From: Clostridiales bacterium
Lineage (GTDB): Bacteria; Bacillota_A; Clostridia; Oscillospirales; Oscillospiraceae
Reading direction: 5' to 3'
NCBI GenBank assembly: GCA_014799485.1
Contig: JAAVHY010000011.1
Span: 20,567 to 84,566, forward strand
Length of the DNA stretch: 64,000 bases
Positions within the stretch are counted from its first letter, which is position 1. The number at the start of each line of letters is the position of its first letter. Below the pieces are notes generated by a model that was given only the letters and a program-made list of their open reading frames with translations, was not told the origin of the DNA and did not search any database. Shown here in pieces: positions 2,126-8,970 of the stretch. The translations under genes were made by a program, and so were the position numbers.

Positions 2126-3274
2126 TCAGCCTTCCGGCGGCCCTTCCGGCTTTGCCGCCGGGGCGGGCAGCCGGGCGCGCAGATCCTGCTTCAGCAGGGT
2201 GTAGGCCACCGCCGCCAGCGGCACGCTCACCACCATGCCGGCCAGCCCCAGCAGGGAGCCGCCCACGGTGACCGCCGCCAGCACCCAGATGCCGGGCAGG
2301 CCCATGGACGTGCCCACCACCCGGGGATAGATGAGGTTGCCCTCGAACTGCTGGAGGGCCACCAGGAATACCAGGAACCACACCGCCTCCCAGGGGTCGA
2401 TCATCACCAGCAGCAGCACCGCCAGCACCGCCCCCAGGTAGGCCCCCGCGATGGGGATGAGGGCAAACACGCCCACCGCCACCGAGATGAGGGGGGCGTA
2501 GTCGAAGCGGAACACGCACATCCCGACAAAACACAGCCCGCCCAGGATGCACGCCTCCACCATCTGGCCGTTGACATACTTGGAGAAGGTGTCCGCCGTG
2601 AGGCGGGCGACGGTGAGTACGCGGCGGGCCGCCCGCTCGGGCAGATAGGCCCGCACCAGGCGGCGGCACTGGGCGGTGAGCCGGGGCGCGCCGGACAGCA
2701 TATAGATGGAGAACACCAGGGAGATGACCCCGGTGATCACCCCGGACACCACCACGCTGGTCATGGTGATCAGGTGGGGCAGGGTGTTGGTGAGGGCGTC
2801 CAGCGCCCCGGTGAGCAGGTTCTTCAGCGAGTCGCTGATGCCGGTGGACAGATCCAGGTTGGCCAACTGTTCCAGCTCCAGCTTGGCCGCCAGCCAGTGG
2901 AACAGCTCCTGGAAGTTGGCGGCGTAGGTGCTCAGATTGCCCACGAACATCTCAAGGCTGTGGGTGAGCTCGGGCACCACCAGGGACACCAGCACGGTGA
3001 CCAGCGCCGCTACAAGCAGGTAGGCGGTGACCACCGCCAGGGGCCGGGCGGCTTTGCGCGCTTTTTTAGGCAGGGCGCTTTCGTACAGCCGGGCGAAGAA
3101 GGAACAGGGACGGTTGAGGATGAAGGCGATGACCCCGCCGATGACGAGGGGCCTGAAGGCCCCCGCCACCCCGCCCAGCCAGCCGGCCACCGCGTCCAGC
3201 TTGACGATGACGGCCACGAGGACAACGGTGTAGGTGATAAGCAGCAGCAGGCTGCGGAACAGCTTTTTGTCCAT
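2126..3274 (-). CDS. AI-2E family membrane transporter
   Basis: 382 residues from the ATG at 3274, chosen because GGGAGG lies 9 bases upstream; a longer frame to 3334 has no such site and would run across the promoter. About eight hydrophobic segments are arranged as in the AI-2E (YdgG/TqsA, UPF0118) family, with the conserved motifs FSIYMLSG, YVNGQMVEACILGGLCFVG, IPIAGAYLGAVLAVLLL and QQFEGNLIYPRVVG. Family members export small metabolites or exchange sodium; the substrate here is unknown. It lies between tyrA and the sporulation genes and has its own promoter. Confidence 0.87.
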   Translation of the reverse strand: MDKKLFRSLLLLITYTVVLVAVIVKLDAVAGWLGGVAGAFRPLVIGGVIAFILNRPCSFFARLYESALPKKARKAARPLAVVTAYLLVAALVTVLVSLVVPELTHSLEMFVGNLSTYAANFQELFHWLAAKLELEQLANLDLSTGISDSLKNLLTGALDALTNTLPHLITMTSVVVSGVITGVISLVFSIYMLSGAPRLTAQCRRLVRAYLPERAARRVLTVARLTADTFSKYVNGQMVEACILGGLCFVGMCVFRFDYAPLISVAVGVFALIPIAGAYLGAVLAVLLLVMIDPWEAVWFLVFLVALQQFEGNLIYPRVVGTSMGLPGIWVLAAVTVGGSLLGLAGMVVSVPLAAVAYTLLKQDLRARLPAPAAKPEGPPEG

Positions 3275-3305
3275 GGGAACAGGCCTCCCATACAATGTTT
3301 TCCTC

Positions 3306-4246: not shown

Positions 4247-5263
4247 TTACAGTTCCCGCCCGACGCAGGCGGCCACGGTTTTGAGCTTGCCCATGATGCC
4301 GTCAAACTGCTCCGGGGTGACGGACTGGGCCCCGTCGCACAGGGCGCAGGCCGGATTGTTGTGCACCTCGATGATGAGCCCGTCCGCCCCGGCGGCCACC
4401 GCCGCCATGGCCATGCGCTCCACCATCCACGCCTTGCCGCAGGCGTGGGAGGGGTCCACCACCACCGGCAGGTGGCTCTGCCGCTTCACCGCCAGCACCG
4501 CCGACAGGTCCAGGGTGTTGCGGGTATAGGTCTCGAAGGTGCGGATGCCCCGCTCGCACAGGATGACGTTGGGGTTGCCGCCGGCCATGATATACTCCGC
4601 GCTCATCAGCCACTCCTCGATGGTGGAGGACAGTCCCCGCTTGAGCAGGATGGGCTTGTTGGTGTGGCCCACCTTCTTGAGCAGGTCGAAGTTCTGCATA
4701 TTCCGGGCCCCGATCTGGATCACGTCCACCGCCTCCTCGAAGAGGGGGAGCTGGTCGGCGCTCATCAGCTCGGACACGATGGGCAGGCCGGTGGCCTTCC
4801 GGGCCTCGTCCAGCAGGAGCACGCCCTCCACCCCCTTGCCCTGGAAGGCGTAGGGGGAGGTGCGGGGCTTGTACGCGCCGCCCCGCAGGGCCACGGCGCC
4901 GGAGTTCTGCACCGACTTGGCCACCTCCAGGATCTGTTCCTCGCTCTCCACCGAGCAGGGGCCCGCGATGACCGCCAGCTTGTTCCCGCCGATGGTCACG
5001 CCGCCGCCCATGTCGATCACCGAATCGTCGGGGTGGTACTTGCGGTTGGCCTTTTTGTAGGGCTCGCTCACCCGCATGACCCGCTCCACGCCGGAAAGCT
5101 GGGCCAGCGTCTCCTGGTTCAGGCCGCTGGCGTCGCCCTCGGCGCCCAGGATGGTGGTCTCGCTGCCCTTGGACACCATCACCCGGACGCCGCCCGCCTC
5201 CATGGCGTGGACGGCCTGTTCCAGCTGCTCGGCGGTAAAATCGTGCTTCATAATGACTACCAT
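4247..5263 (-). CDS. aroF: 3-deoxy-7-phosphoheptulonate synthase (DAHP synthase)
   Basis: 338 residues. It condenses phosphoenolpyruvate and erythrose 4-phosphate, the first step of the shikimate pathway. An N-terminal ferredoxin-like regulatory domain (about residues 1-65, MVVIMKHDFTAEQLEQAV) precedes the catalytic barrel, as in Thermotoga-type (AroF/AroG, type I beta) enzymes. Catalytic signatures are VIAGPCSVESEEQI, RGGAYKPRTSPYAFQG, KRGLSSTIEEWLMSAEYI, VVVDPSHACG and EVHNNPACALCDG. It is the first enzyme gene of an operon with tyrA. The 5' leader carries a Tyr-codon-rich peptide and a terminator, which points to control by tyrosine supply. Confidence 0.95.
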   Translation of the reverse strand: MVVIMKHDFTAEQLEQAVHAMEAGGVRVMVSKGSETTILGAEGDASGLNQETLAQLSGVERVMRVSEPYKKANRKYHPDDSVIDMGGGVTIGGNKLAVIAGPCSVESEEQILEVAKSVQNSGAVALRGGAYKPRTSPYAFQGKGVEGVLLLDEARKATGLPIVSELMSADQLPLFEEAVDVIQIGARNMQNFDLLKKVGHTNKPILLKRGLSSTIEEWLMSAEYIMAGGNPNVILCERGIRTFETYTRNTLDLSAVLAVKRQSHLPVVVDPSHACGKAWMVERMAMAAVAAGADGLIIEVHNNPACALCDGAQSVTPEQFDGIMGKLKTVAACVGREL

Positions 5264-5300: not shown

Positions 5301-5327
5301 AAAAAGCGGCCGCCCTTTGGCAGCCGC
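5301..5327 (-). terminator. Attenuator terminator in the aroF-tyrA leader
   Basis: On the minus strand GCGGCTGCC, loop AAAG, GGCGGCCGC (9 pairs with one G-U), then TTTTT. It lies between the leader peptide stop (5351) and the aroF ribosome site, where it would block aroF-tyrA transcription unless an alternative fold forms. Confidence 0.85.
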
Positions 5328-5350
5328 GCTCAGCAGAACAGCGGGAACCT

Positions 5351-5419
5351 TCAAGGGCATGACGAAACGCCGCTATCATAATAGCGGTAATAGCCATACC
5401 CATAGTTCCGGCGGTCCAT
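5351..5419 (-). CDS. Tyrosine-rich leader peptide of the aroF-tyrA operon (attenuator peptide)
   Basis: 22 codons, ATG at 5419 and TGA at 5351-5353, preceded by AAAAAAGGAGGACTGCGC, a near-ideal ribosome site. The centre reads NYGYGYYRYYD: six of ten consecutive codons are Tyr, far above chance. The codons ACC-CGC-TAT-TAT region can also fold into a 7-bp hairpin (CCGCTAT / ATAGCGG), and the second arm contains AGCGGC, which is complementary to sequence in the downstream terminator. This is the design of ribosome-mediated attenuation: a ribosome stalled at Tyr codons would free the second arm and favour read-through into aroF-tyrA. The mechanism is inferred; the peptide, promoter and terminator are seen directly. 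Confidence 0.85.
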   Translation of the reverse strand: MDRRNYGYGYYRYYDSGVSSCP

Positions 5420-5449
5420 GCGCAGTCCTCCTTTTTTGCTTCTTACGGT

Positions 5450-5478
5450 ACACTAACACTTTTAAGCGTAAAAGTCAA
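5450..5478 (-). promoter_or_regulatory. Sigma-A promoter of the aroF-tyrA leader transcript
   Basis: Minus strand TTGACT (5478-5473), 17-base spacer, TAGTGT (5455-5450), placed about 31 bases before the leader peptide ATG. Confidence 0.7.
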
Positions 5479-5489
5479 GAGGGAATTTT

Positions 5490-5517
5490 GAGGACGCCTG
5501 ATTGCTCAGGCGTCCTC
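5490..5517. terminator. Hairpin between the amidase gene and the aroF promoter
   Basis: Inverted repeat with arms GAGGACGCCTG and CAGGCGTCCTC around a 5-base loop. On the minus strand it follows the amidase stop at once, but only AAAATT follows it, so the U-tract is poor and termination may be inefficient. Confidence 0.55.
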
Positions 5518-5525
5518 TTTGCGTT

Positions 5526-6320
5526 TCAGTCTAACTTGCCCAACCGGTCCAGCACCGTCAGCGTCCGGCACAGGTCCTCGGACAGGTTCAGCTCACCGTT
5601 GCCGGTGCCGTTCAGCGCGCCCTTGTCCATCGCCTTCTGCACGGCGCCCTTGTACCACGCGGGCACGTCCGCCAGGGTCTTGTAATAGGTCATATCCTCT
5701 TCCTCCTCCTTGTTTCCGCCGTCCATGATCCGGGCCACGTCGGCCCGGAAATCGTTCATATCGAACCCAAACCGGGGGAACCAGTTGTAGATATCCCCGT
5801 GGTTGGAGGCCACCCCCCGGCGGTAGCCGTCCTGGTGGCAGATCACCACCCCGTCGGCCAGCGGATCCAGGCCGTACTGCTTGCACAGCATGGCGGTGAG
5901 CTCCGCGGCGGTCTGGTACGCCTGCTTGAAATATGCCGGGTCGGTGAGGCCGTCCTCACACATCTCGAAGGAGATGTGGGTGTCGTTGGCGCTTTTGCCG
6001 CTGGTGCCCTTCCCCGCGTGCCAGCCCCGGTGGTCCCAGGGCAGGGTCTGCACCGCCGCCACCGTGCCGTCCGCCAGCTTTCCGATGAACCCGTGGACGC
6101 AGGCGTCCAGGCCGGGGCGGTTCCAGTGGTTGCCGTTGGGGTTGGTCCCCAGCGCCGCCAGCAGCCCCTCGCGCCCCGGGGTGGAGGCCACGGGCTGGAC
6201 ATACCGGCGCAGGTTGGGGTTGTTGGCCCCGGTGGAATGCACCATCACGCCCAGGGGCTTGATGGTGCGCTTCTTTTTGTAGCAGTCGCTTTCGGTGAGG
6301 ACGCAGTTCAGCAGCTTCAT
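5526..6320 (-). CDS. N-acetylmuramoyl-L-alanine amidase, phage endolysin-like
   Basis: 264 residues from the ATG at 6320. An amidase_2-type domain (about residues 15-185) carries GVMVHSTGA with the first zinc His, then WHAGKG, HISFEMCED and ICHQDGYRRGVASNHGDIYNWFPRFG with further zinc and catalytic positions. It would cut the amide bond between MurNAc and the stem peptide. The C-terminal about 60 residues (YYKTLADVPAWYKGAVQKAMDKGALNGTGNGELNLSEDLCRTLTVLDRLGKLD, read in parts) look like an SLH-like or cell-wall binding repeat common on clostridial phage lysins. The ATG overlaps the holin stop (ATGA). No other phage genes are near. Confidence 0.88.
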   Translation of the reverse strand: MKLLNCVLTESDCYKKKRTIKPLGVMVHSTGANNPNLRRYVQPVASTPGREGLLAALGTNPNGNHWNRPGLDACVHGFIGKLADGTVAAVQTLPWDHRGWHAGKGTSGKSANDTHISFEMCEDGLTDPAYFKQAYQTAAELTAMLCKQYGLDPLADGVVICHQDGYRRGVASNHGDIYNWFPRFGFDMNDFRADVARIMDGGNKEEEEDMTYYKTLADVPAWYKGAVQKAMDKGALNGTGNGELNLSEDLCRTLTVLDRLGKLD

Positions 6321-6529
6321 GCCCCACCGCTCCCTTTCTGTGCCGTCCGCTCCAGCTGGGAACCGAAGTAGAAGGCGATGATGACGGTGTACACCGTCAT
6401 GAAATCCTGGTCGATCCGGCCCCGCAGCGTCATCACGGCGAACACCGCCGTCAGCACCAGGGTCACCAGCGACTTGACGCACAGCAGCCGGGCCAGCCGG
6501 TTGGCCAATACTTCTTTTACCTCTTTCAT
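6317..6529 (-). CDS. Small holin-like membrane protein
   Basis: 70 residues from the ATG at 6529, which follows AGAGGAGAATTGG. Two hydrophobic helices, LCVKSLVTLVLTAVFAVMTLRG and FMTVYTVIIAFYFGSQ, are joined by a short charged turn, with a charged N-terminus (MKEVKEVLANRLARL). Size, topology and the four-base overlap with an amidase gene match phage-type holins of Clostridia that release the endolysin. The pair sits alone between aroF and hpf, so it may be a phage remnant or a captured lysis module. Confidence 0.75.
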   Translation of the reverse strand: MKEVKEVLANRLARLLCVKSLVTLVLTAVFAVMTLRGRIDQDFMTVYTVIIAFYFGSQLERTAQKGSGGA

Positions 6530-6681
6530 CCAATTCTCCTCTCTGTTTCTGTTTCGGACGGGGATCCCTCGGCAGGGGGCCCCAACCACGGCTATGCGCG
6601 CCGCTCCGCCGCCGTGCCTGTCCAATCCCCGGCAGGTGTCAAAATTCCCGCCCCGCAGGGTAAAAAGAAACAAAAAAAGAA

Positions 6682-7347: not shown

Positions 7348-8115
7348 TCAGGTCAGGTAGTTCACCGCCAAAATCGCCGTGCCCAGCACCGCCAGCACCA
7401 CGCCGGTGGCCCGGTTGAGGACGATCGGGCTGGCCTTGTTGGCGAACCGGGCGGCGATGCGGGCCCACAGCAGGGTGGACAGCACGCAGAACAGCAGCAC
7501 CCGCAAATCGGGCATGCCGCCGATGGCGAAGTGGCTCACCGAGCCGGTGAGGGCGGTGAAGGTCATGATGAACACGCTGGTGCCCACGGCGGTCTTCAGC
7601 TCGTACCCCAGCACGGAGGTGAGGATGAGCAGCATCATCATGCCGCCGCCGGCCCCCACAAAGCCGCAGATGAAGCCGATCATGACGCCGCAGACGATGG
7701 ACTGGACGACGCGCTTTTTGGCGGACACCGCCGCCATGGCCTCTTTGGTGGTCATCACGGGCTTGACGATGAACTTGATGCCCAGCAGCAGGGTCATGAA
7801 GGTGGAGAAGCCGCCCATGGTGGTGGCGGGCACCAGGCTGGACACCCAGCTGCCCACCATGGTGAACACCAGCACCGTGGCCATCATCACCAGGCCGTTT
7901 TTTATGTCCAGGTTCTTGTTTTTGCCGTAGGTATAGGCGGAAACGGCGCTGGCCAGCACATCGCTGGCCAGGGCGATGCCCACCGCCTCGTAGGGGGCCA
8001 TATGGAGGAAGGTGATGAGCATGGGGCTGATGACGGCGGCGGCGCTCATACCCGCGAAGCCGGTGCCCAGCCCCGCGCCGATGCCGGCGAGAAAGCAGAT
8101 GATAAACGTAAACAT
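7348..8115 (-). CDS. TSUP (TauE/SafE) family anion permease
   Basis: 255 residues with about eight membrane helices. The paired family motifs are GAGLGTGFAGMSAAAVISPML near the start and IGFICGFVGAGGGMMMLLILTSVLGYELKTAVGTS in the second half, the GxGGG-type repeats of sulfite/organosulfonate exporters. Proteins of this family move sulfite, sulfoacetate or other small anions; the exact substrate is not readable. It lies 9 bases after the MarR-type regulator gene and is co-transcribed with it, which suggests that the regulator senses the exported compound. Confidence 0.88.
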   Translation of the reverse strand: MFTFIICFLAGIGAGLGTGFAGMSAAAVISPMLITFLHMAPYEAVGIALASDVLASAVSAYTYGKNKNLDIKNGLVMMATVLVFTMVGSWVSSLVPATTMGGFSTFMTLLLGIKFIVKPVMTTKEAMAAVSAKKRVVQSIVCGVMIGFICGFVGAGGGMMMLLILTSVLGYELKTAVGTSVFIMTFTALTGSVSHFAIGGMPDLRVLLFCVLSTLLWARIAARFANKASPIVLNRATGVVLAVLGTAILAVNYLT

Positions 8116-8704: not shown

Positions 8705-8970
8705 GCAAAAGGCGCAGATGGGAAGAAGACGCGGCTTCCCCTCGCTCAGAGAGCCGGTGGTTGGTGCGAACCGGCGCGAGACGCCGCGTGGATACTGGCC
8801 CCGGAGCCGCCGGCCTGAACTTGCAGTAAGGCCGGACGGGAGACCCCGTTACAGGTCGTGGCCTTGCTGGAGGCCGGGAGCGCGCATCGGGTGACCGTGC
8901 GCGGAATTAGGGTGGTACCGCGTAGTATATTTATTACGCCCCTGACGAAACGTCGGGGGCGTTTTTCTTT
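8705..8970 (+). promoter_or_regulatory. T-box riboswitch controlling leuA
   Basis: The conserved T-box bulge sequence AATTAGGGTGGTACCGCG is at 8905-8922 and is followed by an intrinsic terminator (CGCCCCTGACG / CGTCGGGGGCG plus TTTTT, 8937-8966). Upstream, CTCAGAGAG (about 8745) and GGTGCGAACC (about 8763-8772) are the distal Stem I motifs, and CGCGGC/GCCGCG form the helix above the specifier loop. The specifier should lie in GGATACTGG near 8800-8808. By alignment to the usual layout it could be ACT (Thr) or, shifted, CTG (Leu); I cannot decide. Uncharged tRNA would pair with the antiterminator and allow leuA expression. Confidence 0.88.

What the first reader, a model, noticed from the sequence alone, without database searches (positions are those of the whole stretch)
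5301..5478. Tyrosine-codon leader peptide and terminator in front of aroF-tyrA
Seen: promoter, GGAGG site, a 22-codon peptide with six Tyr in ten consecutive codons, a hairpin overlapping those codons, and a strong terminator before aroF. Known: ribosome-mediated attenuation by leader peptides is classic in proteobacterial amino-acid operons, while Firmicutes mostly use T-boxes, as leuA does 3.5 kb away. Inferred: this operon senses Tyr-tRNA by translation and not by a T-box. Two different attenuation logics within a few kilobases of one clostridial genome are worth describing.
Basis: partly seen in the sequence, partly recalled or inferred. Interest (0 to 1): 0.72.

Follow-up and report, generated by a model that had tools for sequence, protein, structure and literature searches.

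The report
Tyrosine-sensing leader peptide before aroF-tyrA
A short tyrosine-rich peptide gene in front of a bacterium's tyrosine-making genes looks like a ribosome-driven off-switch, and relatives carry a matching phenylalanine-rich one in front of their second copy of the same enzyme.

Summary
On the minus strand, 5478-5301 holds a promoter, an AGGAGG site, the ORF MDRRNYGYGYYRYYDSGVSSCP (six Tyr in ten codons), alternative hairpins and an intrinsic terminator before aroF-tyrA. Of 44 type-A aroF loci (window plus 43 relatives), 36 have a leader ORF and 8 lack an intact one; parsimony puts it at the root of the clade with six losses. The helix pairing Tyr-codon and stop-codon segments co-varies strongly (own -25.8, swapped -19.3 kcal/mol, z -9.4). 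The antiterminator does not co-vary significantly here, though a ribosome-position model favours it. No Rfam T-box lies here; one precedes leuA. Beyond the finding: 27 of 150 family genomes carry type A plus a second DAHP synthase. In all 18 where both leaders were identified, aroF-tyrA has the Tyr-biased leader (Y:F 93:27) and the other copy a Phe-biased one (19:91). Best reading: ribosome-mediated transcription attenuation by Tyr-tRNA, one of a pair of isozyme-specific attenuators. The mechanism is known, also in Firmicutes, and was once hypothesised for E. coli aroF-tyrA. Function is untested.

The parts
5450..5478 (-). Promoter: TTGACT -35, 17-nt spacer, extended TGT-TAGTGT -10; the spacer carries ACTTTT-N6-AAAAGT, possibly an operator
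   Evidence: Sequence; motif found once in the window; present in 38 of 44 type-A and 1 of 98 other aroF upstream regions
5427..5432 (-). Shine-Dalgarno AGGAGG of the leader ORF, 7 nt before ATG
   Evidence: Sequence
5351..5419 (-). Leader peptide ORF MDRRNYGYGYYRYYDSGVSSCP plus stop
   Evidence: conserved in relatives
5393..5409 (-). Segment 1: GGAACUAUGGGUAUGGC, overlapping Tyr codons 6 and 8
   Evidence: Fold; co-varies with segment 2 across relatives
5370..5387 (-). Inner hairpin CCGCUAUUAUGAUAGCGG within codons 11-17
   Evidence: swap test z -4.3
5344..5363 (-). Segment 2: GUCAUGCCCUUGAAGGUUCC, across the stop codon; pairs with segment 1 or, through GGUUCCCGC, with the terminator 5' arm
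   Evidence: the 2:3 pairing is not significant by swap test
5306..5327 (-). Intrinsic terminator (3:4), followed by TTTTT 5305-5301
   Evidence: terminators in 33 of 35 type-A leaders by the automatic finder
4247..5263 (-). aroF, class I-beta DAHP synthase with ferredoxin-like domain (type A)
   Evidence: NCBIfam NF006421 (PRK08673) above cut-off, Pfam PF00793 and PF18152
3347..4225 (-). tyrA, prephenate dehydrogenase
   Evidence: Pfam PF02153 and PF20463 above cut-off
8706..8946 (+). T-box leader before leuA (the contrasting logic, not part of the switch)
   Evidence: Rfam RF00230, 110.3 bits

Best explanation
Ribosome-mediated transcription attenuation. A ribosome translates the Tyr-rich leader behind RNA polymerase. 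With ample Tyr-tRNA it reaches the stop codon and covers segment 2, so the terminator forms and aroF-tyrA is not transcribed. With little Tyr-tRNA it stalls on the Tyr codons, blocking the 1:2 helix and leaving segment 2 free to hold the terminator's 5' arm, so transcription continues. Without translation the 1:2 helix forms and termination is the default. Supported here by comparison: ORF, SD, Tyr run, 1:2 helix, inner hairpin, terminator. Inferred: the 2:3 antiterminator in this leader, Tyr-tRNA as the signal, transcription-translation coupling. In relatives with two DAHP synthases this Tyr attenuator is one of a pair; the other isozyme has a Phe-biased one.
For: Anatomy. Type-A loci: 36 of 44 have the leader, 8 scattered rows lack an intact one, six losses on the tree, root state 'present'. 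1:2 helix own -25.75 versus swapped -19.32, z -9.4, n=31; inner hairpin z -4.3. In L005, L008, L011, L012 and L133 the stop codon comes earlier, yet TGCCC/CGCCC is kept outside the ORF. At one Tyr column 29 of 32 rows have Tyr with mixed TAT/TAC, 16:13. Ribosome-position model: terminator 5' arm paired upstream 0.69 at Tyr codons, 0.38 at the stop (33 leaders); the drop is 0.31 against 0.08 with shuffled spacers, larger in 28 of 33 (p 1e-6); E. coli pheL as positive control gives 0.83 at most Phe codons and 0.00 at the stop. CM R1: 22 of 150 family genomes at E <= 7e-7, all at type-A aroF; at least three of these supplied rows of the model. Paired leaders: 18 of 18 genomes, Y:F 93:27 against 19:91.
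Against: The 2:3 antiterminator does not co-vary significantly for type A (p 0.12, 0.08, 0.34). At equilibrium the terminator wins in most rows: mean P 0.87 with the ribosome on Tyr, 0.97 at the stop, and only 6 of 33 have any Tyr codon with P below 0.5, so a kinetic argument is needed. In L003, L005, L008, L011, L012, L118, L119, L121 and L133 the shift between Tyr codons and stop is 0.1 or less, or reversed. In the first swap test the window's own segment 2 ranked only 8th of 18 as partner of its segment 1, L001 and L005 12th. L005 has two Tyr. Codon-position statistics show little coding signal outside Tyr. Six losses show it is dispensable. Rows are related, so p values are indicative. No expression or ribosome data.
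Confidence: 0.85

Rival explanations
1. The nascent peptide itself senses free tyrosine (TnaC-like arrest) rather than the ribosome sensing charged Tyr-tRNA.
For: The peptide has conserved parts outside Tyr: YR.Y.SG...CP.
Against: Tyr number (2 to 8) and positions vary, and much of the constant part coincides with conserved RNA pairing (CCGCUA/UAGCGG, UGCCC). L018 keeps AGCGG in another reading frame.
Confidence: 0.05
2. A protein or other ligand works the terminator, and the Tyr-rich ORF is a by-product of RNA structure.
For: Part of the Tyr codons (TACCGCTAT) lies in a conserved hairpin; one column is TAC in 27 of 27 Tyr rows; third codon positions vary hardly more than second ones, 0.454 against 0.440.
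Against: Tyr is also conserved at a column that uses both TAT and TAC (16:13); 117 of 149 internal gaps are multiples of three, the other 32 being 1 or 28 nt; Phe replaces Tyr in the leader of the other isozyme.
Confidence: 0.06
3. A promoter-level repressor acting at the ACTTT-N8-AAAGT motif is the real Tyr control; the leader is secondary or decaying.
For: Motif in 38 of 44 type-A versus 1 of 98 other aroF upstream regions, kept within 120 nt of aroF in five rows without the leader.
Against: Does not explain the co-varying leader helices or the Tyr/Phe difference between isozymes. Could act together with attenuation.
Confidence: 0.12
4. Chance: a small Tyr-containing ORF before a terminator.
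For: Small ORFs are common; 5.1% of control genes reach the threshold.
Against: 0.5% of type-A shuffles reach the threshold; conserved and co-varying.
Confidence: 0.01

Closest known systems
E. coli pheL/trpL-type ribosome-mediated attenuators
   Same: Leader ORF rich in the end product's codons, 1:2 / 2:3 / 3:4 alternatives, terminator before the first gene; pheL gives the same kind of ribosome-position profile
   Different: Tyr as regulatory residue and aroF-tyrA as target
Attenuator sensing Tyr-tRNA hypothesised for E. coli aroF-tyrA (Camakaris 1980, not read; cited in PMC2659441, which lists Shewanella aroF under it, and in PMC8632094; passages read)
   Same: Same operon and same proposed signal
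   Different: Proteobacteria; in E. coli MG1655 I saw no Tyr-rich small ORF in the 210 nt upstream of aroF; control there is by TyrR (recalled)
uORFC-13-1 motif of Acholeplasma aroF (PMC8632094, section 26 and passages read)
   Same: uORF and terminator before DAHP synthase, read as attenuation
   Different: Phe (at least one codon), 24 representatives, no Tyr run and no isozyme pairing mentioned in that section
Listeria rli60 ilv attenuator (PMC5864092) and S. aureus ilv leader (PMC5794164), passages read
   Same: Leader-peptide attenuation in Firmicutes, with experiments
   Different: Branched-chain amino acids, other operon
His-leader attenuators in Firmicutes (PMC9413887, PMC2965389, passages read)
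   Same: Predicted leader-peptide attenuators where others use T-boxes
   Different: his operon, hisS, hisZ
T-box riboswitch (RF00230)
   Same: Senses tRNA charging; present at leuA in this window and, by core motif, at aroF in L037
   Different: No Rfam T-box match here; acts without translation (recalled)

Membership tests
Ribosome-mediated transcription attenuator | Translatable leader ORF with SD | tested here: met
   SD and ORF seen and conserved; translation itself not observed
Ribosome-mediated transcription attenuator | Run of codons for the operon's product | tested here: met
   Six Tyr in ten codons before aroF-tyrA; 18 of 18 genome pairs show the Tyr/Phe split
Ribosome-mediated transcription attenuator | 1:2 helix between codon run and stop region, conserved by co-variation | tested here: met
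   z -9.4, p 5e-5, n=31; rows are related, so p is indicative
Ribosome-mediated transcription attenuator | 2:3 antiterminator | tested here: inconclusive
   Swap p 0.12, 0.08, 0.34; profile drop 0.31 versus 0.08 in shuffles, 28 of 33. Type B: swap p 0.015, n=25
Ribosome-mediated transcription attenuator | 3:4 intrinsic terminator before the first gene | tested here: met
   33 of 35 type-A leaders
Ribosome-mediated transcription attenuator | Expression responds to charged-tRNA level through translation | not testable with these tools
   No expression data
T-box riboswitch | RF00230 match or T-box core upstream | tested here: not met
   Only Rfam match in the window at gathering threshold is at leuA. 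Core regex hits 2 of 142 aroF upstream regions: L037, and L124 where it falls on the terminator
uORFC-13-1 | Phe-coding U run in the uORF | tested here: not met
   The window's leader has no Phe

The most novel reading that the evidence does not exclude
In this Oscillospiraceae-like lineage two DAHP synthase isozymes in one genome are each metered by a different aminoacyl-tRNA through separate ribosome-mediated attenuators: Tyr for aroF-tyrA, Phe (with some Trp and Tyr) for the copy that heads the general shikimate operon. That does with stalled ribosomes what E. coli does with TyrR and isozyme-specific repression (recalled), and it implies close following of polymerase by the ribosome in a clade of the phylum for which uncoupled transcription has been argued from B. 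subtilis.
Probability: 0.65. Interest if true: 0.68.

Novelty: new member of a known kind. Interest (0 to 1): 0.55.

Why it matters
It gives Firmicutes a candidate Tyr attenuator on aroF-tyrA and, in relatives, a matched Phe attenuator on the second DAHP synthase: a built-in comparison of two codon-specific sensors in one cell. Because the mechanism needs the ribosome close behind RNA polymerase, it turns the question of whether clostridia couple transcription and translation into a reporter experiment. T-box (leuA) and leader peptide (aroF) about 3 kb apart can be compared in the same strain. Rfam at gathering threshold reported nothing at this leader, and in 27 relatives' loci only tRNAs and one T-box away from aroF.

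Tried and rejected
Equilibrium folding as the sole test: the terminator wins almost everywhere, so I added folding before the 3' arm is made. RNAalifold on the MAFFT alignment found the terminator and little else; the 1:2 register slides between rows, so the own-versus-swapped duplex test replaced it. 2:3 swap test in several forms for type A: none significant. Other genes with the same leader by covariance model: the 22 strong hits are all type-A aroF. I looked at six weaker hits (which read L204 and L206 on the wrong strand; both re-read): five show no aromatic leader, and one (G116, E 1e-5) is a divergent leader MKNFFFYAYYYRFTFHNSRAVL before that genome's aroF. The many hits weaker than these were not opened. 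Stop-to-terminator distance as a proxy for uncoupled transcription: too few terminators (16 in E. coli, 5 in the window, 23 in type-A loci, 7 in Clostridium/Pelosinus), p 0.22, inconclusive. Promoter motif as a wider regulon: besides aroF, hits have mostly 2-3 mismatches; eight loci (one of them aroF itself) were looked at, no clear regulon.

Rows dropped before counts. From then on, L111, L125, L134, L139, L168, L170 (same places as other rows) and L120, L140, L169 (near copies with the same leader). L002, L011, L019 from the nonredundant sets. L124 (no inner-hairpin motif); L115 and L137, where the terminator finder failed though imperfect terminators are visible, from the terminator tests. 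L144, L156, L163 (no terminator found). L015's leader was not included in the structural tests. For G037, G012 and G013 the leader of L019, L017 and L018 stood for L120, L125 and L134. In one search L138 (just under 69%) was counted with the others; as type A.

Full report
Observation. The finding is exact. On the minus strand 5478-5301 I find TTGACT with a 17-nt spacer and a weak extended -10 (TGT-TAGTGT), AGGAGG, an ATG ORF of 22 codons (MDRRNYGYGYYRYYDSGVSSCP) with six Tyr in codons 5-14, a hairpin inside those codons, and a 9-bp GC-rich terminator with TTTTT. The leader RNA folds better than all 200 dinucleotide shuffles (z -4.2). Downstream lie a DAHP synthase with the ferredoxin-like N-terminal domain and a prephenate dehydrogenase. 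The only Rfam match in the window at gathering threshold is the T-box at 8706-8946 before leuA.

Relatives. One scan of genome contigs kept the best 80 aroF loci of 584. A search of 150 genomes drawn from the family of the nearest relative found a DAHP synthase at E <= 1e-60 in 117. Type A (69-93% to the window) is found in 28 of the 150; 27 of these also have a second copy, and five further genomes have more than one copy, none of type A. I took 44 distinct type-A loci, the window included. tyrA follows on the same strand within 165 nt in 40 of 44; in L007 and L132 the hit begins about 1.1 kb on, and L015 and L136 show none. 35 leaders were read in full, L015 has one further upstream, and 8 have no intact one. 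On a tree of AroF, A is separated from the four other copies included (100/100); the rows without leader form six groups, and parsimony puts the leader at the root of A. Five leaderless rows (L016, L113, L116, L117, L138) keep the promoter motif within 120 nt of aroF. L127 has a degraded leader, L135 an in-frame TAG near ambiguous bases, L136 nothing I recognise.

Is the ORF translated and the Tyr run selected? An SD-preceded small ORF with at least 5 aromatic residues in 12 codons occurs in 28 of 43 type-A and 67 of 99 other aroF upstream regions, against 0.5% and 2.8% of shuffles and 5.1% of 392 control genes. One Tyr column is Tyr in 29 of 32 rows with TAT 16 and TAC 13; another is TAC in all 27 Tyr rows, where it reaches into the hairpin. 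Third-position differences (0.454) only slightly exceed second-position ones (0.440), so the general coding signal is weak. Tyr number ranges from 2 to 8 in the 35 leaders.

RNA structure. I compared the duplex energy of each row's own segments with swapped partners (31 nonredundant rows). Outer 1:2 helix (Tyr-codon segment with the TGCCC-stop segment): own -25.75, swapped -19.32 kcal/mol, z -9.4, p 5e-5, 29 of 31 rows better than their median swap. Inner hairpin: z -4.3, p 1e-4, with 19 of 31 better than the median. Antiterminator 2:3: p 0.12 (29 rows), and 0.08 and 0.34 with narrower definitions, so not significant. In the earlier 18-row test the 1:2 result was also p 5e-5, but the window's own segment 2 ranked 8th of 18 for its segment 1 and L001 and L005 12th. 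Rows are related, so p values are indicative. Examples: GGAAC/GUUCC in the window, GGUAC/GUACC in L006, CCGGUUAUG/CAUAACCGG in L017, AGGGUAUUAC/GUGAUGCCCU in L012. In L005, L008, L011, L012 and L133 the ORF ends before TGCCC (CGCCC in L005 and L133), yet those bases are kept, which points to pairing, not coding.

Ribosome-position model. Masking the RNA under a ribosome and folding what has been made before the terminator's 3' arm, the terminator's 5' arm is paired upstream with mean probability 0.69 with the ribosome on Tyr codons and 0.38 at the stop (33 leaders). The drop is 0.31, against 0.08 with shuffled spacers, and larger than the control in 28 of 33 (p 1e-6). E. coli pheL, run as a positive control, gives 0.83 at six of seven Phe codons, 0.64 at the last, and 0.00 at the stop. 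Against the reading: with the whole RNA at equilibrium the terminator is formed at 0.87 (Tyr) and 0.97 (stop), only 6 of 33 rows have any Tyr codon below 0.5, and in L003, L005, L008, L011, L012, L118, L119, L121 and L133 the arm shift is 0.1 or less, or reversed. So antitermination would have to win by forming first, as in classical attenuators (recalled).

Specificity. A covariance model of 18 leaders (R1) finds the window, one of its own rows, at E 8e-27 and 22 of 150 family genomes at E <= 7e-7, each at type-A aroF; G001, G012 and G013 among them supplied model rows, and the search used strict filters. Of the other six type-A genomes, five are those without a recognisable leader and one (G064, degraded leader) matches at E 0.002.

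The second isozyme. In the 27 paired genomes the second copy shows no tyrA hit in the stretch fetched. In the eight such or similar loci opened, an aroB-like ORF follows directly or after one small gene; Pfam confirms DHQ synthase and EPSP synthase in L161, and DHQ, EPSP and chorismate synthase in L025 (C. difficile CD160). Its leader is different, about TASFxFxxGWARFMGxGFFGMxK. In the 27 genomes I identified both leaders in 18; in all 18 the aroF-tyrA leader is more Tyr-biased, Y:F:W 93:27:8 against 19:91:17. The leaders were picked by total F+Y+W, so this split was not selected for. Of 28 such type-B leaders examined, 25 have a terminator; 1:2 swap z -7.7 (n=28), 2:3 swap p 0.015 (n=25), arm pairing 0.75 at aromatic codons against 0.42 at the stop, lower in all 25, while the equilibrium terminator stays at 0.95 and 0.97. 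Elsewhere the picture is mixed: other lineages have a single aroF among the loci I saw, some followed by a distant tyrA, with F+Y-rich leaders (for example L041, L054, Clostridium L020 and L023, C. difficile L025, Pelosinus L028, L030, L031, Megasphaera L068); I did not test those structures. Whether the window's own genome has a type-B copy is unknown, since only 64 kb are held; its nearest relative has one (L152).

Literature. Papers were seen as search listings and passages; section 26 of PMC8632094 and section 4 of PMC4833913 were read whole. Leader-peptide attenuators in Firmicutes are tested in Listeria (PMC5864092), supported in S. aureus (PMC5794164) and predicted for his genes (PMC9413887, PMC2965389). 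PMC8632094 describes a Phe-coding uORF before aroF in Acholeplasma and recalls that attenuation of E. coli aroF was hypothesised in 1980; PMC2659441 lists Shewanella aroF as 'attenuator sensing tyr-tRNA' on the same source. So the idea for this operon is old in Proteobacteria. PMC2494555 reports a T-box before the tyrosine operon of the B. cereus group. In ten searches I saw no description of a Tyr leader on clostridial aroF-tyrA nor of a Tyr/Phe pair; the library lacks most subscription papers. PMC7858274 (passages) summarises the case for uncoupled transcription, which is why attenuators here are of interest.

Verdict. A known mechanism, well supported by comparison except for its antiterminator, on a target not described in Firmicutes as far as I could find. 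The more interesting part lies outside the window: isozyme-specific Tyr and Phe attenuators in the same genome. New member of a known kind; interest 0.55 (lowered from 0.56 on recheck, because of the older E. coli hypothesis).

Noticed in passing
window 5478-5450 (-); type-A relatives: Conserved promoter motif TTGACTTT-N8-AAAgxGxTA with a half-palindrome ACTTT..AAAGT in the spacer, in 38 of 44 type-A and 1 of 98 other aroF upstream regions: a possible operator for an unknown repressor, kept in five rows where the leader is lost.
   Followed up: partly
L141-L166 (most) and L024, L027, L040, L049, L060, L171: Second DAHP synthase with a Phe-rich leader; many have a terminator of the form CTCATTGATTTCATCAATGAG whose 5' arm and loop can pair with a stretch like GGATGAAATGAATG after the leader stop.
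   Followed up: yes
L204 (G116), before its aroF: Divergent leader MKNFFFYAYYYRFTFHNSRAVL with terminator, found by the covariance model at E 1e-5.
   Followed up: partly
L037 upstream of aroF: T-box core GGTGGAACCACG before aroF and no leader peptide found: perhaps a switch of sensing system on the same gene.
   Followed up: no
L103 and L093, near position 1500: A similar promoter motif precedes a gene that looks like iorA (recalled from its sequence), with a terminator in between, and an acyl-CoA synthetase-like gene (impression) with a T-box-like GGTGGTACCACGG.
   Followed up: no
L015, about 440 nt before aroF: Tyr-rich leader MTNFICTNYYYNYRYYFNGVICV separated from aroF by a long stretch with inverted repeats, perhaps an insertion.
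   Followed up: no
L135 upstream of aroF: Leader with an in-frame TAG in the Tyr run next to ambiguous bases, RNA model still matched at E 2e-16: early decay or assembly error.
   Followed up: no
window 5526-6673 (-): ORFs upstream of the leader look like an amidase and a holin-like protein (impression from sequence only, untested); a strong terminator-like hairpin 5490-5517 lies between them and the aroF promoter.
   Followed up: no
window 2126-3283 (-) and 7348-8115 (-): AI-2E family transporter downstream of tyrA and a TauE/SafE exporter between the leader region and leuA.
   Followed up: no
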